Shown: piece after piece, positions 24,456-55,598 of the stretch
How positions within the stretch are numbered: position 1 is the stretch's first letter
Layout: each line of letters begins with the position of its first letter
DNA from: Lophium mytilinum
Taxonomy: Eukaryota; Ascomycota; Dothideomycetes; Mytilinidiales; Mytilinidiaceae
DNA length: 64,000 nt
Assembly (NCBI GenBank): GCA_010093605.1
Contig: MU004184.1
Coordinates: 1,135,897 to 1,199,896, forward strand
Direction: 5' to 3'
Notes under the pieces: generated by a model
The model's database searches: none
The model's input: only the letters and a program-made list of their open reading frames with translations
Told to the model about the DNA's origin: nothing
Made by a program: the position numbers and the translations under genes

Positions 24456-26003
24456 ATGGCCTCGAAACAAGCACCGGCAGAGAACATGCTATGGGGCGGC
24501 CGCTTCACCCGTATGTTTCAACTCCAATTAACGTTGAAAGAGTCATTTCGACATCCTGTCTCAAGCTTCACCCCGCGCAGTACTGACGCTTCGCAGAGGG
24601 CCTTGACCCATTGATGGTCAAATACAACACTTCCCTACCCTACGATAAGATATTCTGGTCGCAAGACATTCGGGGCAGCATTGCTTTTGCGCGCGCCAAT
24701 CTCGCTGCTGGCATTCTCACCTCCGGCGAGTTCGCCGCAATCGAAAAGGGGTTTGGGCAGATCGCCGAAGAATGGAGGTCGGGGAAGTTCGAGGAGAAAG
24801 AGAATGACGAGGACATCCATACTGCAAACGAGCGGAGGCTGAGCGAGCTGCTGGGCAAAGACGTCGGCGGCAAGCTTCACACGGGCAGGAGCCGGAACGA
24901 GCAGATCGCTACCGATATGAGGCTATGGTTGAGGGATGAGTTGAGGACTCTGGAAGGCTACCTAATGGACCTTATCAAGGTCGCGGTCAGCAGGTCAGAA
25001 AAGGAGATCGATGTCCTGGTAAGAGCCAGCAGCTCCAACATAATCATGAAGAAACCTAGTAGAATCAATCCTAACAACTCCCCAGATGCCCGGCTACACC
25101 CACCTCCAAAAAGCCCAGCCAGTCCGCTGGTCCCACTGGCTCCTCTCCCACGCAACCGCCTTCACCTCCGACCTCGAGCGCCTGCGCGAAGTCATCTCCC
25201 GCGTCAACCGCTCGCCCCTAGGCTGCGGCGCGCTAGCCGGCAACCCCTTCAAGATCGACCGCGAAGCCATGGCCAAAGAGCTCGGCTTCGAAGGCCTCCT
25301 CTACAACTCCATGAACGCCGTCGCCGACCGCGAATTCGTGCTCGAAACCATGCAGTGGGGCTCCAGCTTCATGCTCAAGATTTCCCGCTGGGCGGAAGAC
25401 CTAATCATCTACTCCTCCCTAGAGTTCGGCTTCGTGCGCCTCGCGGACACGTATTCTACTGGTTCGTCGCTCATGCCGCAAAAGAAGAACGCAGACTCGC
25501 TCGAGCTGCTTCGCGGCAAATCTGGACGCGCGTTTGGGCAGATGGCGGGTCTGTACTGCACTATCAAGGGCCTGCCGACGACCTACAACAAGGACTTGCA
25601 GGAGTCGGTTGAGCCGATGCTCGATCATATCAAGACGGTTGGCGATAGTATGCAGATCGCGACAGGCGTGCTGTCGACGCTGTCGATCCACCCGGATAAG
25701 ATGCTCGCGGCGCTTGCGCCTGAGATGCTGGCGACTGAGTTCGCGGATTACCTTGTTCGCAAGGGCGTTCCGTTCCGCGAGGGGCATCACATCTCCGGCC
25801 GTGTGGTGCAGCTCGCGGAAGAGAACAGCGTGCCCATGGATAAGCTGACGGTTGAGCAGCTGCAGGGTATAGATGCGAGATTCGATGAGGATGTCGTATC
25901 GTGTCTGGATTACGAGCGCGCGGTTGAGCTGAAGGACGCGACTGGTGGCACGAGCAAGAGCGCTGTTAGGGAGCAGATTGAGGTCCTCAAGGGGATATTG
26001 TAG
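24456..26003 (+). CDS. ARG4: Argininosuccinate lyase
   Basis: Three exons (24456-24510, 24597-25018, 25086-26003) give 1,395 nt and 464 aa, the usual family length. The enzyme cleaves argininosuccinate to arginine and fumarate in the last step of arginine synthesis. Signatures seen: [13 protein letters not shown] at the start, [49 protein letters not shown], and the fumarate-lyase signature [20 protein letters not shown] containing the flexible-loop catalytic serine. The first intron splits the codon of Gln in FTQG; the second precedes MPGYTHLQ. Exon 3 is markedly GC-rich at third positions compared with exon 2, suggesting high expression or biased conversion. A MITE lies about 80 bp beyond the stop. 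Confidence 0.97.
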
Positions 26004-26081
26004 GTTTTTTCTCATATATGATTCATGAGGACAGGGTGGAGTATGGTCGTGTTGTGATTTGGTAAAAGTGTTTAGATAGGT

Positions 26082-26465
26082 TACAGTGACAGGCCACAAG
26101 TTTGGGCACACTGAGTCGCCACTGCCAGGAGCCCCCCCCAAAGATTTAGAAGATCTATCGGCGATGTCGGTCTTTAAATAGTGCAGATTAGACTGCCTCT
26201 TAACTAAATAGCTACTTTGCAGTTAGGCTACCCCCTACAGTGGTATTAAGTAAGCAATATTAGAGCCTAGCAGTAATAGATCCACGTTTTCTAGGATTTC
26301 AAAGAACTAAAGGCAATGTTGAGTTTTAAGTAGTGCAGGTTAGACAGCCTCTTAACTATGTAGCTCCTTAGCAGCCAGGCTACCCCCTACAGTGGTGTCG
26401 AGTGAGCAATACTAAAGCCAATCAGTGACAGTTAGGTGTGCCCAGACTTGTGGCCTAGTACTGTA
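26082..26465. mobile_element. Tc1/mariner-type MITE, 384 bp with internal duplication
   Basis: Terminal inverted repeats of about 43 bp: left begins TACAGTGACAGGCCACAAGT, right (reverse complement) TACAGTACTAGGCCACAAGT, both running into TGGGCACAC and ending near CACTG. TA dinucleotides bound both ends. Inside, a block of about 135 bp is present twice in direct order, starting near 26143 and 26303, sharing TAGTGCAG, GCCTCTTAACTA and GGCTACCCCCTACAGTGGT. No coding capacity is seen. The copy at 9052-9280 has related ends but lacks this duplication. Confidence 0.85.
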
Positions 26466-26620
26466 CGTATTTAATGGTTGAACGCACTTCATACCCACTT
26501 TGTTCGATTCAGAGTCACCGAGTGAGCCTGGGGACTTCAGACAGCGGTAAACAAGAGTCACGAAGCAATGCATCAATCACAGAAAGCGAAGATGAGGCGG
26601 ATGTGTTGTATTGATTGAGG

Positions 26621-27082
26621 TTATCGACTAGTGCTATGAGGATATGTATCAGGAGGGGGTATTCGTGAATAAACGAAAGACGACCGAAGCAAAGAAAACC
26701 GCTGTCCACCACTGCTCGACAAGAATGTGCTTAGGGAGATGAAGAAGTGAGTGAAAGTCGACGCCGATCCTGGAGCTGATGCTCTCCAAGCCCTTGCTGG
26801 TGCTGATGCAGTCGGAGGTGTAGCGCCCTGAGACATTGGCCTCATAACCATCGGCTCCCAGTTGCTCCGGTACTGTTCAGTCACCACCTCACTTTTCGAC
26901 CCGGGCTCTCGGAGTTCGATTTCCTTCTCTTCTTGTATGATCATGCAGCAAGTACAGATCAAGGACTTGAGACAGTCGTAGAACACGTTCCCCTTAAGAT
27001 TGTATCGATGCCGGATTTCCGTTTCTTGCACGCATGGAAGGATCCATGGGCATCGCAACAGGGTACAGCATTGCGCGATGCA
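26621..27082 (-). pseudogene. PLAC8-family gene, C-terminal half (inverted part)
   Basis: Reading leftward from 27082, the frame gives CIAQCCTLLRCPWILP, ETEIRHRYNLKGNVFYDCL and LICTCCMIIQEEKEIELRE, the second half of a fungal PLAC8 (Cys-rich, often membrane-associated) domain. It has no N-terminal half upstream on this strand. Instead an intron end precedes it (branch GCTAAC and acceptor ATCAG at 27083-27100), and then MITE sequence. The matching first half lies on the plus strand at 27714-28031. Joining the 28031 exon end to 27082 is phase 0 on both sides and restores the usual Asn-Gly-x-Cys spacing. I read this as one gene split by an inversion. The tail beyond about 26760 (Ser/Pro-rich) is of uncertain extent. 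Confidence 0.75.
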
Positions 27083-27159
27083 CTGATCGAAGTTAGCTCC
27101 ATAATCGCGATAGGAGATGGTGTTTTGGCGGGGATATACGGAAAGGGATCGGTGAGTTT

Positions 27160-27365
27160 CTTGAAGAGTGATGGTAAGAAGGAGATATATACACCTGTCT
27201 GCCACTTCTTGGAGTGCTTTAACAAGTTTCCAGATAGCCCAAAACTAATGGCAATCATCTCATTTGTATCTCTTAAAATGTATCGAAGCACCACAAACAG
27301 CGGCAGACAGTTGTATAAGAGGCAGAATGCGGGTTGAGTGTGCCACCTTTTTCATACCACGTGTG
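27160..27365. mobile_element. MITE (5-bp TSD family), interior plus one TIR
   Basis: The right end (27336-27365) is a 30-bp terminal repeat of the family CACGCTGGGCATGAAAAAGG (here reading CACACGTGGTATGAAAAAGG from outside inward). The interior holds the family's subterminal inverted pair, CACCTGTCTGCCACTTCTTG near 27190 and its partner near 27280-27325. The expected left terminal repeat is missing; the sequence passes instead into the PLAC8 intron. The missing repeat is found at 28061-28090. The flank outside the right end is GCAGG (27366-27370), the reverse complement of CCTGC next to 28090. Confidence 0.75.
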
Positions 27366-27545
27366 GCAGGCACCTTCTCAACGACGAGATCATGGCTTCT
27401 AGTTTCCACACACATCACATGAAAGAGCGATGTCACCCCTGTCACTTTGTTTATTTAGTCTCCACCGCCTGCGTCTTCTCGACCTTCTCTCTCACATTCC
27501 ACTCCGCAGCATTGTCAACCAGCAACACTAAGCTTCCATCCATTA

Positions 27546-27599
27546 CTCTCATCCACTACTCCGCTCTCATCCACTACTCCACTCTCATCCACTACTCCG
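27546..27599. repeat. 18-bp tandem repeat, three copies
   Basis: The unit CTCTCATCCACTACTCCG is repeated three times with one mismatch, upstream of the first PLAC8 half. It lies in a pyrimidine-rich stretch typical of fungal promoter or leader sequence. Confidence 0.8.
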
Positions 27600-27713
27600 C
27601 TCTCGTCTCCCTCGCCGTTTCACTGTCGTCGTGTTCTTGTCTCGTTCTCGGCGTTGCTCGACCACTCTCTGGACTTCACATCCCACCGCTTGCATCGTTT
27701 CTTTGCATCCATC

Positions 27714-28060
27714 ATGTCGACCCCCGCCTATCCTCAGACCGCCGGCAGTCCCTCGCAAGACATCGACGTTGAGAATCAGCGTAGAGACAACGTCAACGAA
27801 TCTGGATCAGCACCGGCAGCTCCAGCTGGCGAGAAGCAGGACCGCCTGGTCTCGCTCTCTGACTGCTTTGATCCGCCGGGATTATGTAAGTTTGATCACT
27901 CGTTGACCTTATCATGCTCAAGCGGAACTACTGCTGACAAGTGTCTCTGCCCATGTTATATCTTTGGGAAGACGTACCATCGACTGAAGAACAACGGCGA
28001 CATGAGCACATTTAGACCGGCCAATGGCCCGGTACATGATCGCTCTACACAGATCTTGAT
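27714..28060 (+). pseudogene. PLAC8-family gene, N-terminal half with split intron
   Basis: From ATG 27714 (MSTPAYPQTAG) the frame encodes a Pro/Ala-rich leader, LVSLSDCFDPPGLC, KCLCPCYIFGKTYHRL and MSTFRPANGP, the first half of a fungal PLAC8 domain with its C-x-C-P-C core. The exon ends at 28031, where GTACAT forms an intron donor in phase 0. The intron runs only to about 28060 before MITE sequence starts. The second half is on the opposite strand at 26621-27082. A perfect-looking donor GTAAGT at 27886 with an acceptor at 27941 would remove a 17-residue insert inside the domain, but that 56-nt excision would break the frame. Either it is not used or one base has been lost. The truncated frame adds only a short unrelated tail before stopping at 28077-28079. 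Confidence 0.72.
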
Positions 28061-28090
28061 GAGTGTGCCCACTTTTTAATGCCCAGCGTG
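28061..28090. mobile_element. Orphan MITE terminal repeat
   Basis: A lone 30-bp terminal repeat, inside-out orientation (GAGTGTGCCCACTTTTTAAT then GCCCAGCGTG), directly follows the broken PLAC8 intron. The flank CCTGC (28091-28095) is the exact reverse complement of the flank of the TIR ending at 27365, so both belonged to one insertion. Confidence 0.8.
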
Positions 28091-28371
28091 CCTGCTAGGT
28101 GGGAAGAAGTCACGCTTGCCATTTCTGTGCAAGCTTCAAGCTCAGCGCCTCATCATAATATGAAAACTCTGGGTGCCGGCTCGGTGGTCATTTCTATCAG
28201 CCTAGCATTCAGGGACCGGCCTAGGTCGGGTGGTGCTGAAATTTGTGCAGACCACATTGGAAGTAGTTAATATCGAATCCGACCTTTATAGGCGGTAGAG
28301 TCTAAACACTGGAAGGGACTCGGAGGGAGGTCCATTCAGTTCTAGGAAGGAGAAGTACCATGACGTGAAGG

Positions 28372-28602
28372 CACGCGGGGCATAAGAAAGGTGGCACTCT
28401 TATTCCAATCAACCCTCGATAGATGTGTACGCGTGTATGCCACTGTTCGGGTTGCCCTAATGCATTTCAGAAACCAAAACGAGAGAGAAGCTCTTCACTC
28501 TAGGCCATCTGAAAACTCGTTAGGGCAACCCAAGCAGTGGCATACACGCGTACACGAGATAGAGTGCTTGAAGGGTGTGCCACTTGTTTCATGCCCAGCG
28601 TG
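28372..28602. mobile_element. Complete MITE, 231 bp, TSD GAAGG
   Basis: Thirty-base inverted ends (CACGCGGGGCATAAGAAAGG at left; CACGCTGGGCATGAAACAAG reverse-complemented at right) enclose a second inverted pair (GTGTACGCGTGTATGCCACT near 28425, and its partner near 28535-28555). Both sides carry GAAGG (28367-28371 and 28603-28607), a 5-bp target duplication. There is no coding capacity. Confidence 0.85.
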
Positions 28603-28607
28603 GAAGG

Positions 28608-29638
28608 GACGCTGGGCCACTGCGAAACGCGCTGTCTACCAATCAATCCAAAGAGGAGGAGCGTGGCCAAGATGTTATGAGGAGCAATGCTCATGACCTG
28701 GACGATCTTAGTAAGGAGAAGGCGGAAAGGAGAGAGAAAGAGGGACGCTGGGAGCGTCACAGTTGGGCTTGGCTCTAATTCTCACCACCCACTGACGTTC
28801 CATGGAATCAAGAAGCATAACAAGAAGGATTAGAATGAGCAATCAATCCGGATACCAGAACAAGCGAAAAGGAAACTCGTAGATAAAAGTTCATTTATTG
28901 ATTATATCCTCCTATTGGCATAACCTACATTCACGACATCCTCCGAATTCAATTCTGGTAATTCAATATCATCGTTTCAGAAAGGGTAAACCAACCCAAC
29001 CCAAATCCCCCATCATGCTTCCCGGCGAAAAAGATCCAGGAGCTCAAAGACAAACCTTAAATCCATTCCAGTAACAGCCTAGGGGGGAATCTTAATAAAA
29101 AGGACAAATAAGACTGAGCGCTCACACGCAGCATGCTCCCCAAAAATGACACGCAAAATGAACCAATGTGACCGGAATAAAGACGAAAGCCTCCGAAGGC
29201 GAAGGACATCGCTGAAGCGAATGTAGTGGTAACGTGACTGCAGGCCAAAATGCAATCACTAATCATGTTGCAGAATGAAGCTCATCATCAAAATGCTAGG
29301 AAAAATATCGAGATCGGTGGGGGCGTATTACTTTGTACAAGGTCTCCGAGAATGGAGTGATGATAGATGAAACCACGCAAGCACGGTTGAGATCGCCCGT
29401 GGAGCCAGTCCCGAGCTAAGAGGGTATTATCGAATAGAAATTTGTTGGAGTGTAGCTCGGAGCTGAACGTAGCGTGTGTCGAAGATCTCGATTGGGCATC
29501 TTCGCTGCCATCACTTAGAAGACATGATGATATAACTTCTTCTCTGAAAAGGCCGTGATAGAGACGTATGGGGACGAGTCAGACGTTTTAGCTGAGAATG
29601 ACATATCCGTGGAGCTGGTGCTGGTGCTAAGATCCTAT
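28608..29638. other. Intergenic, 3' side of the Bem3-type gene
   Basis: About 1 kb without a recognisable gene, left of the minus-strand RhoGAP stop. A second stretch resembling the MITE end (GACGCTGGGCCACTG at 28609) follows the element immediately and might be a fragment. Open frames here are short. Confidence 0.45.
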
Positions 29639-44183: not shown

Positions 44184-44373
44184 CACGCTGGGCACAAAAA
44201 GGTAGCACACTCAGCAAGCGTCCTGTCTCGTGCGGTCGGGTATGCACCTGTCTGTCACTGCTTGAAGTGCTTCAACAAGTTTCAACACAGTCGAATGCTG
44301 AGACTTTCCATCTTGTTGAGTATACACCAGACAGAATGCTCGGTAAGTGTGCCCTTTCATCATGCTCGGTGTG
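44184..44373. mobile_element. Complete MITE, 190 bp, TSD CGCGA
   Basis: Terminal repeats CACGCTGGGCACAAAAAGGT (left) and CACACCGAGCATGATGAAAG (right, reverse complement), an inner CACCTGTCTGTCACTGCTTG segment shared with the copy at 27160-27365, and identical 5-bp flanks CGCGA at 44179-44183 and 44374-44378. There is no coding capacity. It sits between DED1 and IES1, about 260 bp before the IES1 start. Confidence 0.85.
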
Positions 44374-47146: not shown

Positions 47147-48055
47147 TGGACGATGTGGGGTGACTGGGAGGTACTTGGCGTTTGGGCATGGGCGCATCTG
47201 GTAAAGGTTATTCACTCAAGGGCTGTAATATAGGCTATGGGCTTGCAAGCTTGCGAGCTTCAAAGAATGGGCTAATTAGTGAGTCTTACGAATATCAGGG
47301 TGGCAGTTGTAGGATATAATTGATGAAACCATAGACTTGTTCGGTTTCTGTACGAGCAGCCGTAACATGGGGCTTAATTAATAGTCCAGATTTCGTAATC
47401 GGATGACATTGCCTTTGAAAATGATCAGACTGTCCCTGTTCACTGCATAGAAGTACATGTTTAAGGGACACCACTGACACCTTCACTGAAGCACCGCCTT
47501 CCCACCGCTTGTTCAAGTAGTTGAGGTGGATTATGTCTGGATTTCGCAGGCTTCCTTGAAGTAATTCGTCTAGTGGTAAACGATCCCGATCTCGATTATG
47601 GGTTTGAACTGTACACTCGTGAGCCGATTAGGCAGAAAGTGGCAATAAAAATAGGAGTAGTCTGATTGGTGGTAGGCATCTTGCACGTGAGTTTCAGCCT
47701 GGTCGATCTCACACCTCAACCCTCATTCCCAGCCTGACTTCTTCCTTCTTTCCATGGCCCTAGAAGAAGCGCATGAGCTGCCGCCTCTTGTGTCCATACC
47801 AGCTCAAATCACCAGAAAGTATCCAAAATATAGTCAAATCACTGCTACCTCCACTATTGTCCATGTTACCAGATACTCCTTATCGAAGTGATTTAGCTAA
47901 GTAGCATGAAAGTCACCAGTATTGGGGGACACACCGAACTCTATCGTTATAACCCTTACTTCTCGTCGAAAGTTTCCAAAATCTTCAGAGACACTCCAAG
48001 TAGAAGTAGATGAGGATACACGCACTCTCGACGACATACCGCAGCACCCTCGAAA
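47147..48055. other. Intergenic, upstream of the HET gene
   Basis: No gene is called. At 47565-47615 the motifs CTAGTGGTAAACGA and GGGTTTGAACT resemble the A and B boxes of a tRNA-derived sequence, but no acceptor stem pairs. The last 150 bp before the HET start should be its promoter. Confidence 0.45.
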
Positions 48056-48768
48056 ATGAGACTTCTCGACACAAGCACATTTAAAGTGTACGAATCCTTC
48101 AGAGGCACAATTAAACTGCACGAGTTCTTCGGAAACGCAATCCCAAACTACGCCATCCTTTCGCACCGGTGGGAAGATGGCGAAGTCTCGTTCCAGGACT
48201 TGCGAAATCCACAGGTGGCGTCCCGGAAAGCTGGGTGGAGCAAGATAAAGAGGTTCTGCGAGAAAGCCGCTGAGAGTGGATATAGATACGGCTGGATTGA
48301 CACTTGTTGCATTATATAGAGTCACCATCAATACCTTTACCCTATAAAAGGAGCGGCATATGCCGCTAAATATAGCGGTAGAACGTATATAGCTATTTAA
48401 TACAAAGGTAGTCTTAAGTCTTAGTTAGTTATAATTCAACTAAGAAACCTCCTTACAGTATGGCTTTAGAATCCGATCTTGTAAGAAGGCTCAGAATCAG
48501 GCACGGGGCTGAGCAATGGCTGAGCTCATCTTACTACTTAAGTCTGTCGCCATTACTACCTAACAAAGTAACCACTCTTATACACTAGTTCGGCTCGGGC
48601 TTGCACCGCCACAGCTTACAATCTGCTTATATACACTAAAACTTACTAATACCTAAGTCTATTTTAGATTTTAATATTATTAGCTATAAAAGTCTAATAT
48701 AAGTTAGTAAGTAAGAACTTAGAACTATTAAATTATCTATATTTTATTCTACTATATCTACTAGGCTA

Positions 48769-48864
48769 TAGTAGCTAAGTATATACTTTATATAGTAGCT
48801 AAGTATATACTTTATATAGTAGCTAAGTATATACTTTATATAGTAGCTAAGTATATACTTTATA
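48769..48864. repeat. 24-bp tandem repeat, four identical copies
   Basis: The unit starting TAGTAGCTAAGTATATACTT and ending TATA is repeated four times without differences near the left boundary of the RIPed block. Perfect identity inside a mutated region implies that the duplication arose after RIP. Confidence 0.9.
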
Positions 48865-51800
48865 TATAGCGCGTACTATATACTTAAAAATACGCTACCT
48901 CTAACTAGCATTATAATAAAGACTCTCGGAATAATATCTATAAATTATTTCTTTTTCTTCTTTAATTACTCTTACTCTATAAATATATTTTTCTAATCTC
49001 TACCTATAAAAGTAGGGTGCTAACTAAAGCTATTAACGCCGTTAGCCTATAACTCTTCTATTAGTGCGCTATAGACCCTAATCTTTATACTAATATTTAC
49101 TAGTTAACTAAAACCTTTATAAGCCGGCGTAAAGAAACGCTCTATTAAGTCTTAAAAAGAAAATATAATAAAGAAGGTTAGAAATCTTAAGCTATCTATA
49201 TTAAGAATATTACTTATATAGTACTAAAGAATATTCTACTCCCTAAAGAGATAATTTTTTAGTTATAGAGAGAAGAATAAAAGCCTAAGAAACTATAAAT
49301 TTTCTTAGGCTCTAATTAGCAACCTTTACCTTTTAAAGTTAAGAAGCGTAACCTAAATTCTATTATCTTACTTACGCGGCACTTACTTTTTATAGATAAG
49401 AATAAGGATAATAATAATATAGAGTGGGGCACGTATAAAGAACTTAAATCTAGTACTTTTATAAAGGTTTTCTATATAACTTATTCTAAGATACTAGGTT
49501 TAAGCTATACTATAAAGATTCTAAATAAACGCCCTAAAAGAATTAATACAGCTATACTAGAGGCTTTCGCCTCTATCTTATTAAAGTACTTACCCTATAT
49601 TATTAAAATTATTAATTTATAGATTAGAAGTAGATTATTTAATCTTACTACACTTATAGTACTTATGCTGCCCTTAGTAAATAGTAGGCATCTAGGTAAT
49701 TAACTACGCACGCTTTTAGTTAGTAGGGGGAGTGCTAATATACTACTTTAGATTAAGACTTAAATCTTTTAATAGATATATTATTTAGTAAGAATATTAG
49801 ATAAAATTTATAGAACTAGCTATATATATAGAGATATAAAACTAGAAAATATTTTTATCTATAATAACTCTATACTCTATACTAATTTTAGTTTTTATAA
49901 ATTTTAAACGCATTTAATAGACCTAAAGTAGATATCTAGCGGGTCTACCGTAGAAATAGTACTAGTCCCGCCTATAGACGGCTAGAAATTAGAGAACTAT
50001 AATTATCTATATAATTATAGTTTAGAGCGGCTACTCTAAGATAATAAACTTTTAAAATATAAACCTCTAATACGGGTAGAACCTAGAGAGACGCTAAATA
50101 AGGTTATAGAAATAGGTAAAATTAGTAGTAATATTTTTAATCTTAGATAGATTATCTATAAGATACTCTAGGTAGTAACTTCTACTTTAGTTTATAGGAG
50201 AAAGCTACTATATCAGCTAATAGTAAAGATTTTTATATAGGATAGATAGTAATAATTCCTTACACTAATTAATAAAATCTTAAGATTATTACCGCCTTCT
50301 AATATAACTCTAGAAGTTTTAAAAGAGCCTGCGCGTTATACTAAGCTTACTTAGAAGTTACTAAGTATTATTATCTATAATATAGTTATTTCTACTACCG
50401 CTAATTAGAAGCCTTTAGGGAAAGTTACTAAGCTTATTAAAGATATAATAGACTTATATAAGATAGCTCTAGATACTTATTATACTAGAGATAGTAGACT
50501 AGTTTATAAGCCCTAGTAGACTTAAAGAGTAGTCTAAGTTATAATTATAGTTATATATCTTTTTTAAATTTATAATTAATCTATTATATTCTATCTATCG
50601 CCGTAGCTATTAGCTAGCCTTACGAGCACGTTCTTTAAGCACGTTCTTATTAGCGTATTAATTAATCTAGATTAAAGCTACTATATAGCCTCTTTAACTT
50701 ATAGATTATATTACTTATTTAAAACTTTATATATAAGCTAATAGCTAGTAGATATAATATAATTTATAACTTTTTAATAATTTCTAAGTAATCTATCTAT
50801 TTACCGTCTAATAGTAGCTACTATATCTAACGCCTATAAGTATAAGATATAGTTAATATAGAATTAATAGTTTTGCATTTTTTATATTTCTAGTCGCCTT
50901 TTACTATAATAACTACTATAAAGAATAGTATTTACGCTTTCTATATAATTATTTATAGGTATAGTTAGTTTCTAATAGTAGTATTAAAACTTAAATAGCT
51001 TTTAGTAGGTCTCTTAGTTATTAAACTTATTAGTATATATTCTAAGAGAACTTCTTAGCTACCTACCTTATTATTTAGCGGATTAGATCTACCTATTATT
51101 ACTACTAGTACTTAGTTTAGTAAATTAGCAGCTTCGCGTTTATAGAAGTAAGAGTCTAGGTACTTAAATAGATAGGTATAAAAGCCTAATATAATTAAGA
51201 GAGAGATTTTTTTAGATAGAAATTAGAGGGAAGTAGCTTAATCTATATATATATATTATTAGGCGCCCTAGATTAATAGCTTATTCTAGAAGCAGGTTTA
51301 GGTATAGCCCTAGTCTAACCGCGTAGATGCTAAGTATAGCAGCGTGCATATAGATATTAAAGAAATAAACTATTAAGTATAGCCCTTAAACTTAATAGAA
51401 TAAAAAGTAATACTTAAATTATCTAAATTATACCTATTTAATAAAATTAAAGTTATTTTATATTTACTATAGGTGTCCCTAGTTCTTTCTTAGGTCTTTA
51501 AAGTATAAAATAGCTTAATTTAAAGCGTCTTATATATATAAATACTATTAAATCCCCCTCTAAGTTAATTTACTATAACTAAGACTTCCCTATTGCATTT
51601 AATTTCCTTAATTATTTACTAAGGGACAGGCTATAGTCTAATAAGAATACCCTCTATTTTAAATCCTTATATTAGCAGTTTCTAATTTAAGTTAAACTTA
51701 AAATTTGCGACTATTTAGGCTTCTTTTCTCTAAAGAAGTATACTATTACGGCTAAACGCCTTAGTTAGACTTATTTATTTACCTTAAATATAGAAATAAT

Positions 51801-53842
51801 ACTATTTAGCGTAGCTTTAATATATATATATATATAGGTAAGATTTATTCCCTATATTATCTCTATATAGGTTAGTTATTATAATAAGTTAGTAGGCTCT
51901 AATAGTTAGTTTAGAAAATAATGCTATAACTTTAGTTTCTATAATCTATATAGAAGTAGACTCTCTATCTATAACTAGAGCGGTAAAAAAATAGATACAA
52001 GAATACCGCTGCGCAGTATACCTTAATAAAAACTTATTCCGGCCTACCCGCCTTATTAATATTAGAAGGTTGGCTAATTAACGTTATATTATAATAATTA
52101 AGATAAATAGAATATTAATTCTAGAATATACTTATCTCTCTTATTACTAGAGAGCCTCTTAACTAATTATAAACTTAATTACCCGCAAATTATCTCTAGA
52201 AGAATAAAAGATTAAGATATATAAGCTACTATAGATAATATAAAACTCTATTTATATATTATATTAGTTTTAGTATTAATATATATAGGTTAATAGCCTC
52301 TATATATTCTAAGATAATATTATAGATAAAGAGAAAGAAATTATTTTAATATCTTAAATCTATAAAAGTTCCGCCCTTATAATATATATATTAACGGCTT
52401 AGTTATATAAGAAAGGTTTTCTTTAACTGCGGCTTAAATATAGTAAATTTTAGCTCTAGATTAGTATACCTAGTAATAAAGTTAGTAGAGTCTACCTAGA
52501 TAGAATTAAGTAGTTTTTTCTACCCGCTAAAGAGGTATTAGGTATATAAGCCTAGGCATTATAAGAAAGGTTACTCTCGCCCCGTTTACTAGAGTATAGT
52601 TAGAGAACTGTAAGGTAGACTTACTTCTATACTAAGAGGTATAATAGATACTAGCCTCTACTAGTAGAAATTACTTAAGAAGATAAGAGCCTAATTATAG
52701 TAAATTATAACCTTTTTAGCTATCTTAACCTAATAGGGCTACGGCGCATTATTTAATATAGAAAAGAGCTTTTTATCTACTAGATTAAAGTTATTAAATA
52801 GTATACCCGTTAGAATCTTATATTTTCTAATAATAGACTTACTGCTATTAGTATAATTACAGTAGAAGTTTAAGAAAGGACTAGAGTACCTTATCTTATA
52901 GAATTATAAGATTATAAAAAGCTTCTATTTCTACTATTATAGAGAAATATATTGCCTCTTTAGAAACTTCTTTTATAACTATTAATATTGCGTGCACCTT
53001 TATAGTTATAGGCTAGTATTAATAGTCTAGTATTAATAAATTATAGTAAAGAGTTAGTATTATTATTTAGAATTATAGATAGAGAAGTCTCTAGTAGCTT
53101 TAGTATATTAGTATAAGGGTTAATTACTATTAAAGGCCGTATTTAAAGAGATCTATAGTAGACTAATAGATTTAATTAGTAGAAATATTAACTAATATTA
53201 GAGGATTTAACTTAAGTTACTTTAACTAGGCACGATCTAGAAATTAATATTTAGCCTAACTATATTAATAAGATATTTACTATTAAAGATAATATAATTA
53301 TAGTATTTCCGGGTTTAGGTTTAGTATTTTTAGCTATTAGAGTGGCAAACTAGAACTATAATCTCGTTCGCGGGTTAGTTCTAGCGAGATAGGATAAGAA
53401 GTATTATAGAAGGGTGGCCTTTTTCCAATTATATAGTAAGTAGAGTGCTACTATAATAGTAGACTAGCGAGTAGAAGCTATATATATTAAGTAGTATAAA
53501 CTATTATAATAAATTTATTCTAGAATCTATAACCTTTTAGTTAATAATATATCTAGAATATAAGTTAAATTAAAGGCTTTTAAATAATACTATATTTAGC
53601 ACTAAATAAAAGGGTTTATAGGATTAAGAGGCTATTAAAATTATAAATTTTAGTGGGGTATAAAGGCCTATTATATAGTAAATAAACTATATAACCTAGT
53701 ATAGCTACTTAAAAAGAGACTTTATATAAGATTACTTTGCAGGTTAATATTTATCGCTGTTTTTAAGTTAAATCTACCCTTAGCATACACCCGACTAGGC
53801 TAGTTAATAGTAGACAGCCTTTGCGAATAGTTGTCCTATGTA

Positions 53843-53873
53843 AGAGGCTGTCCTATGTAAGTGGACAGCCTCT
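53843..53873. repeat. Perfect inverted repeat in the unRIPed right edge
   Basis: AGAGGCTGTCC and GGACAGCCTCT pair as an 11-bp stem around a 9-nt loop. The loop-side sequence TGTCCTATGTAAG is also repeated directly just upstream. It may be a structural or terminal part of the inserted element. Confidence 0.75.
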
Positions 53874-55598
53874 GCTTAAATTTTTAGACCTAGTAGACAT
53901 TCATCTGCCTTAGCGGTCCTGGAAATGGGACCCTGCGTGAGAGGGTGAACCGCAACCCGGAAGGGGGGAGTCTATTTTCAGGCCCTTAAGCGGAACAGGG
54001 ACTATAAAATCTAAAAATAGTTATAGAGTAATTAGAAAGTACTTAAGGATAAATAACACCGTGTGGAATGTAAACCATAAAAATTACAGGTGTAAAAAAG
54101 GTTTAATAAAGTCAATATTGTCGCATTTGTACAATAAGTCTGTATCAACAAAATAAGCAGCTCCGAGTTATCGGAGTCCATAAATTCGATGTATCAATGG
54201 TATAAGAACGCCAGCGATCGTTTTGTGTACTTGAGCGATGTGACGACCGAGATTGAGGAGCCGTGGCGCGCGGGTGTGGAGAACGTTGAACACGAGTCAC
54301 TACCGTCGGTCTATCAACAGTTTGCCGAAAGCCAGTGGTTCACAAGAGGTTGGACTCTTCAAGAGCTTATTGCACCGAAGCGCGTCCTTTTCTACGATAC
54401 AAAGTGGCAGTCCCTCGGCAGGAAAGAGATATTGCTTGATCCGCTTGCCCAGATAACAGGGGTGGACTTCTATGTTCTAGAAGGGATACGCGACCCTTCA
54501 TCCGTGAGCGTGGCGAAGAGGATGTCTTGGGCATCAGCAAGAGAGACGGCTAGAGAGGAGGATATGGCGTACTGTCTGCTCGGCCTATTCGATGTCAACA
54601 TGCCAATGCTCTATGGGGAAGGAAAGAAGGCGTTCGTGAGATTACAAGAAGAGATCTTGAAGACCTCCGATGATCACTCCATATTCGCATGGACTATGTT
54701 TTCCCCGGAGGACGAGTACAGTTTCAATGGGCTTTTGGCGGAGTCACCAGCTGCCTTCAGCAAATCGTCTTCCATTGAATCCCTTGATCACACGAATATC
54801 GGCGATTACGGAGATCACGAGTATAGCATGACGAACAAGGGATTGAAAATTACCCTTCAATTGATACCGTGGGGCGTAGACGTATATCTTGCTCCTTTGC
54901 GGTGCCACGGGGGGGGATCTTCCGGGCCTTTGTACATATTCTTGTTCGATCTAAAGGCGCCCCGAGACCGATTCTTAAGGATGAGGGTACTAGGAGAGAG
55001 TTGGACAAGCCTAAGGGACGCGACGAAGGCCGAGGAGAAGAGGACCGGCGAGATCAGGAGGGACTTTTGGAAGATCGAGGAGAAAACTATATACATCCCA
55101 AGAAAAGGTGGCAACTCAGGTCGATTCTCCTTCTACGGATTCTGGATTCGAAGCATCAGAAATGCTGGCATCATCGAAGTGTATCCGGAAGAGCGCTGGG
55201 ATTCCACAGAAGATATTTTGAAAATGCCGCCAGGTCCAGGAATCGTTACCGGGGTGTTACTCTGTGGCGACGAGCATGTAAAATTCACTGTCCTTCTAGG
55301 ATTCAGAGAAGACTCCCAGCCATTTATCTGCATACGGCGAGCGGATAGTGCCGATCCGAGATTCGCATTCGAGAATGTTCCCGAATATGAGCCCAAGAGA
55401 TGGAGCATGGTCACGTATCTTGACTACTACCGCAAGATCGCTGCAGAAGGAGTTATCGAAAGGCCCTCGAACGATGGCAATCATTTCAGATATGCCGTTG
55501 ATATCAGGTTGGTCTCGATTTGATGTATTTTAGGAAATTTCATGAATATAGAACTCAAATACTAACACTACCCTTTACTTTCTTCCGAATCTGCGACA

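What the first reader, a model, noticed from the sequence alone, without database searches (positions are those of the whole stretch)
26621..28095. PLAC8 gene split by an inversion that also tore a MITE in two
Seen directly: the first half of a PLAC8 gene (27714-28031, +) ends at a phase-0 donor, and the second half (27082 to 26621, -) begins at a phase-0 acceptor with a GCTAAC branch point. Next to the second half lies a MITE lacking one terminal repeat (27160-27365); next to the first half lies exactly one orphan terminal repeat of that family (28061-28090). The flanks outside the two repeats are GCAGG (27366-27370) and CCTGC (28091-28095), reverse complements of each other. Flipping about 27160-28060 restores at once a complete MITE with the direct 5-bp duplication CCTGC and a PLAC8 gene with one intron. 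Both halves are still open, so the event looks recent. Two independent reconstructions from one inversion make chance very unlikely.
Basis: partly seen in the sequence, partly recalled or inferred. Interest (0 to 1): 0.85.

Follow-up and report, generated by a model that had tools for sequence, protein, structure and literature searches.

The report
Small inversion splitting gene and transposon
In this fungus-like genome a stretch of about 850 bases flipped around, cutting a small gene and a short mobile DNA element in two; it looks like a well-documented accident that most likely left the gene dead, rather than a new kind of system.

Summary
The observation largely holds and the inversion is well supported; several details are wrong. 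An intact copy of the roughly 233-bp MITE matches the window in two separated pieces: 27190-27365 (element 1-175) and about 28049-28090 (the other end). With the segment turned, both are flanked by one 5-bp duplication, CCTGC; 26 of 39 copies with both ends seen (59 examined) also have identical 5-bp flanks. A partial paralog on the same contig (C4:1919341-1919711) keeps the uninverted order: first half, GTACC, then the intron piece now at 27189-27091, 97 of 99 bases equal. A second paralog (L010) has a phase-0 intron where the gene is broken.

Corrections: the junctions are 27189/27190 and within 28035-28048, not 27160 and 28060. The gene had two introns; the first lost its acceptor with 28 bp relative to the partial paralog, so the first half is open only if unspliced, and "recent" is not shown. 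No inverted-repeat pair of 18 bp or more sits at both junctions, which points to two breaks and end joining. It is an ordinary gene-breaking microinversion with unusually good internal evidence. The organism was not identified; no sister genome was available.

The parts
26621..27082 (-). second half of the PLAC8 gene (PF04749 positions 51-101 plus an open C-terminal tail)
   Evidence: E 1.9e-10, above cut-off
27083..27189 (-). 3' part of the interrupted second intron, with acceptor and GCTAAC branch-like site; 27091-27189 matches the uninverted paralog C4:1919613-1919711 at 98%
27189..27190 (.). inversion junction 1: intron joined to the base of the MITE inner palindrome
27190..27365 (+). MITE piece A (its reverse complement = positions 1-175 of an intact 233-bp copy)
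27366..27370 (+). GCAGG, one copy of the presumed target-site duplication (inverted)
   Evidence: family flanks
27371..27713 (+). presumed promoter and 5' leader of the first half (three repeats spaced 18 bp)
   Evidence: role is inference
27714..27885 (+). PLAC8 exon 1, ends at a phase-1 GTAAGT donor
   Evidence: phase as in L010
27886..27941 (+). remnant of intron 1, acceptor lost with 28 bp relative to the partial paralog
   Evidence: paralog intron 1 is 72 nt
27942..28031 (+). PLAC8 exon 2 (CPC..GKTYHRL..NGP), ends at a phase-0 donor
28032..28048 (+). inversion junction 2: GTAC of the intron donor, then 12-13 bp that are either filler or a diverged copy of the MITE linker
28049..28090 (+). 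MITE piece B, the orphan right end
28091..28095 (+). CCTGC, other copy of the presumed target-site duplication
   Evidence: family flanks

Best explanation
A MITE of about 233 bp (5-bp target duplication, CCTGC) inserted about 350 bp upstream of a PLAC8 gene that then lay whole on the minus strand. Later two breaks, one at GTAC at the donor of intron 2 and one at the base of the MITE inner palindrome, were rejoined with the roughly 850-bp segment between them (27190 to about 28035-28047) flipped, by end joining with a few bases lost and perhaps a short filler. The segment carries the presumed promoter and the first half of the gene, so the two halves now point away from each other and intron 2 can no longer be spliced in one transcript. 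The gene is most likely dead; intron 1 also lost its acceptor, at an unknown time. Shown: the pieces, their fit to intact MITE copies, and the uninverted order in a paralog. Inferred: end joining, loss of function, and the order of events.
For: The MITE pieces fit an intact copy end to end: A = positions 1-175, B ends at 233; 26 of 39 copies run from the matching point through a 14-26-bp linker into the right end (repeating). The window's outer flanks are reverse complements, as a flip of a 5-bp duplication requires; 26 of 39 copies with both ends seen have identical 5-bp flanks. In the paralog at C4:1919341-1919711 the first half runs through GTACC directly into the reverse complement of 27189-27091, with a phase-0 donor. 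The break falls at the place of a phase-0 intron in paralog L010, between ..NLP and CVGFC.. (window ..NGP and CIAQC..). Each half hits a complementary part of the Pfam profile. Of five inverted-repeat pairs of 18 bp or more in 26000-29500, none sits at both junctions, which argues against recombination between repeats.
Against: No sister genome or reads were available, so the ancestral allele itself was not seen. The paralog is mosaic: first-half stretches match at 85% (99 bp) and 75% (55 bp) but the intron piece at 98%, which I cannot explain; it is itself broken, with an in-frame TAG in its exon 2. The first-half Pfam score alone is below the cut-off, and exon 1 shows no convincing match to L010 (score 23). 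Part of junction 2 (28036-28048) is not assigned with certainty. 13 of 39 copies with both ends lack identical 5-bp flanks.
Confidence: 0.93

Rival explanations
1. Assembly error: the segment is flipped in the assembly, not in the organism.
For: Nothing directly; raw reads were not available.
Against: No inverted-repeat pair of 18 bp or more sits at both junctions to mislead an assembler, and a few bases differ at the junctions as expected of a repaired break.
Confidence: 0.03
2. Coincidence: a truncated MITE, a separate solo MITE end, and two unrelated PLAC8 fragments happen to lie side by side.
For: Truncated copies of this MITE are not rare: 19 of 59 examined copies lack one or both ends (20 missing ends). 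PLAC8 fragments occur elsewhere on C4.
Against: The pieces are complementary to within a few bases, the flanks fit the expected 5-bp duplication, and a paralog has the first half and the intron piece in one orientation.
Confidence: 0.02
3. Transposase-driven rearrangement: aberrant transposition of the MITE ends made the inversion.
For: One junction lies inside a MITE.
Against: The break is about 43-58 bp inside the element, at the base of the inner palindrome, not at the outer tip, and both outer ends and both presumed target-duplication copies survive.
Confidence: 0.02

Closest known systems
End-joining inversions, as described for Drosophila (PMC7584159, passages seen)
   Same: Breaks rejoined without repeats at both ends; that paper also places breaks at or next to sequence able to form hairpins or cruciforms.
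   Different: Here the inversion is under 1 kb and splits one gene; no inverted duplications at its ends were seen, whereas that paper's inversion has duplications and several breaks.
MITEs of Dothideomycete fungi (PMC4522978, passages seen)
   Same: Short elements without known proteins, with terminal inverted repeats.
   Different: The family here (TIR beginning CACGC, 5-bp duplications, inner palindrome) was not compared with any named family, and its transposase partner was not found.
PLAC8 family / fungal FCR1 (PMC6488628, outline and abstract seen)
   Same: Cys-rich PLAC8 domain (PF04749).
   Different: The window gene is broken and its function was not tested.

Membership tests
PLAC8 (PF04749) | match to the Pfam profile above the cut-off | tested here: met
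   second half 42 bits over 34.4; first half only 16.6-17.3 bits on its own, below the cut-off
PLAC8 (PF04749) | CPC motif and intron positions shared with another family member of the genome | tested here: met
   CPC..TYHRL aligned; phase-1 donor and phase-0 intron at corresponding places (L010 introns placed by hand)
PLAC8 (PF04749) | the whole domain in one gene on one strand | tested here: not met
   halves lie on opposite strands
MITE | terminal inverted repeats | tested here: met
   intact copies fold end to end; ends aligned
MITE | fixed-length target-site duplication | tested here: met
   5 bp identical in 26 of 39 copies with both ends seen
MITE | many short copies | tested here: met
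   40 scored of 109 candidates; 154 TIR-like sites
MITE | autonomous partner with a transposase | tested here: inconclusive
   one search lists only part of the 154 TIR sites; no partner picked out, none searched by protein
Inversion by recombination between inverted repeats | inverted repeats at both junctions | tested here: not met
   (18 bp or more); GTAC in the intron donor and at the MITE palindrome base is the one short match I noticed by eye
End-joining inversion | uninverted allele known from a sister genome | not testable with these tools
   no relatives held; a paralog was used instead

The most novel reading that the evidence does not exclude
The base of the MITE inner palindrome is a recurrent fragile site: extruded hairpins are cut there, so this MITE family seeds truncations and inversions across the genome, and this inversion is one product. 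For: 0 of 20 truncation ends in 59 copies fall inside the inner palindrome (positions 50-167), eight sit at its two bases (44, 45, 49; 168, 171, 176 three times), and three internal deletions begin at 173-175. Against: 9 of 17 internal deletions of 6 bp or more lie wholly inside that palindrome. The count is post hoc, some copies share a subfamily or a different right end, alignment ends are fuzzy, and the copies came from capped searches.
Probability: 0.15. Interest if true: 0.5.

Novelty: new member of a known kind. Interest (0 to 1): 0.3.

Why it matters
It is a clean example in which one genome alone documents a gene-breaking microinversion, because a mobile element and a paralog both record the earlier state. 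If MITE palindrome bases were recurrent break sites, such elements would be small local sources of rearrangement, which population genomics could test.

Tried and rejected
I first read 28036-28047 as pure filler replacing a lost 16-bp linker; one search shows a gapless 57-bp alignment of 28034-28090 to an intact copy (9 of the first 15 bases equal, partly because AC of GTAC is shared), so a diverged linker is also possible. A search of the window for a template of 12 bp at junction 2 gave 8 matches with up to 2 mismatches (one of them the site itself) against 5.6 expected, so nothing beyond chance. Identifying the organism by 5.8S rRNA failed (0 matches). A transposase partner was not found (capped list). 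Literature: searches were searched; among the listed titles and abstract starts I saw none plainly about this rearrangement or MITE family, but the organism is unknown, the library is open-licence papers only, and only four papers were opened.

Full report
Setting. The window is contig C4:1135897-1199896 of a 43.18-Mb genome in 24 contigs, with no relatives held. Genes with short introns and an AT-rich block at 48-54 kb (GC 25-32%) look fungal to me; the species was not identified (one search found no 5.8S match). A paper search returned the Ascochyta lentis genome paper (PMC8022934, passages seen; almost 42 Mb), similar in size, but nothing ties the window to that species.

The MITE. A search with 27160-27365 scored 40 of 109 candidates; of the 39 copies other than the window's own, 37 begin to match at 27187 or later and two at 27180 and 27186. 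Of 39 copies fetched, 26 continue from that point through a linker of 14-26 bp, commonly cacacgaccgcaaaag, into a roughly 43-bp right end; the other 13 have a shorter, longer or missing connection. That right end lies in the window at about 28049-28090, some 680 bp away from its element. Aligned separately to an intact 233-bp copy, the window gives positions 1-175 (27190-27365) and 177-233 (28034-28090, the first part weak). Of 59 fetched copies, 39 show both ends and 26 of these have identical 5-bp flanks. The window's outer flanks GCAGG and CCTGC are what an inversion of one side of a CCTGC duplication gives.

The gene. The first half (27714-28031, +) and second half (27082-26621, -) match PF04749 positions 9-38 (16.6 bits, below cut-off) and 51-101 (42 bits). 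Paralog L010, which reads as intact with introns placed by hand, has a phase-1 intron of 68 nt and a phase-0 intron of 91 nt; the phase-0 one lies between NLP and CVGFC, as the window break lies between NGP and CIAQC. Exon 2 of the window aligns to L010 residues 27-54, ending exactly at that intron; the second half aligns from residue 68, with one residue fewer before it. The part upstream of the first donor shows no convincing match to L010 (score 23).

The uninverted witness. A partial paralog at C4:1919341-1919711 carries first-half sequence and then, directly after ..ATGGTACC, the reverse complement of 27189-27091 with 97 of 99 bases equal. The match ends at 27189 also when the whole window is the query. 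This is the order the window would have without the inversion. The paralog keeps an intron-1 acceptor, gives a 72-nt intron 1 and a phase-0 donor at GTACC, and shows that the window lost 28 bp containing the acceptor and the start of exon 2. The paralog is itself broken: an in-frame TAG in exon 2, and its match stops at GAGCTAACT, before the acceptor, with no second half found in the 6 kb fetched. Its mosaic identity (first-half stretches 85% over 99 bp and 75% over 55 bp, intron piece 98%) is unexplained; gene conversion is a guess. Another site, C4:1308.1-1309.0 kb, holds second-half-like fragments, part of them in tandem. Differences between these and the window fall at codon positions 7/9/10, 6/8/10 and, in a third stretch, 5/3/2; first-half exon 2 against the C4:1919 kb paralog gives 4/4/3 and the end of exon 1 0/1/2. 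The larger counts show no clear third-position excess, so at least part of this subfamily seems to have drifted without constraint; which branch did so is not resolved.

Mechanism. Junction 1 reads ggagatata|TACACCTG; junction 2 reads ggcccgGTAC, then ATGATCGCTCTA, then CACAGATC. No inverted-repeat pair of 18 bp or more sits at both junctions. GTAC occurs both in the intron donor and at the base of the MITE inner palindrome in many copies, so joining by very short homology is possible. Either the linker was lost and 10-13 bp of filler added, or the linker stayed and diverged; one search does not decide. Two breaks and end joining explain what is seen; cuts at the MITE tips by a transposase fit poorly, because the outer ends and flanks are intact.

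Break positions in the family. Among 59 copies, 8 left and 12 right truncation ends were seen in 19 copies; none of these 20 lies within positions 50-167, and internal deletions in L045, L046 and L068 begin at 175, 174 and 173. Against a simple fragile-base picture, 9 of 17 internal deletions lie wholly within 50-167, four of them the same 107-117 deletion and two the same 97-107 deletion. L069, L117, L129 and L130 may share a different right end rather than being truncated, and L056 and L069 align poorly at their ends. This is a lead only.

Verdict. The inversion is real with high confidence; the gene is most likely dead and may have been decaying already. The event cannot be dated here. A fungal PLAC8 protein, FCR1, confers cadmium tolerance (PMC6488628, abstract seen); nothing here tests that for this gene.

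Noticed in passing
28372-28602: A second, complete MITE-like element of 231 bp with related ends and identical 5-bp flanks GAAGG/GAAGG; other copies match at up to 88%.
   Followed up: partly
26082-26465: A MITE-like element with 43-nt inverted arms (77% complementary) and two internal 137-bp repeats (79% alike) spaced 152 bp, just beyond the second half of the gene.
   Followed up: no
44184-44313: Another partial match to the same MITE family in the window.
   Followed up: no
L081 (C4:1306500-1311500), near 1308.1-1309.0 kb: Second-half-like PLAC8 fragments, partly in tandem, on the same contig.
   Followed up: partly
L080 (C4:1917000-1923000), 1919613-1919711: Intron piece 98% identical to the window while neighbouring first-half stretches are 75-85% identical; unexplained mosaic.
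   Followed up: partly
48001-54000: AT-rich block (GC 25-32%) beside a gene that looks like a HET-domain gene (recalled motif, not tested).
   Followed up: no
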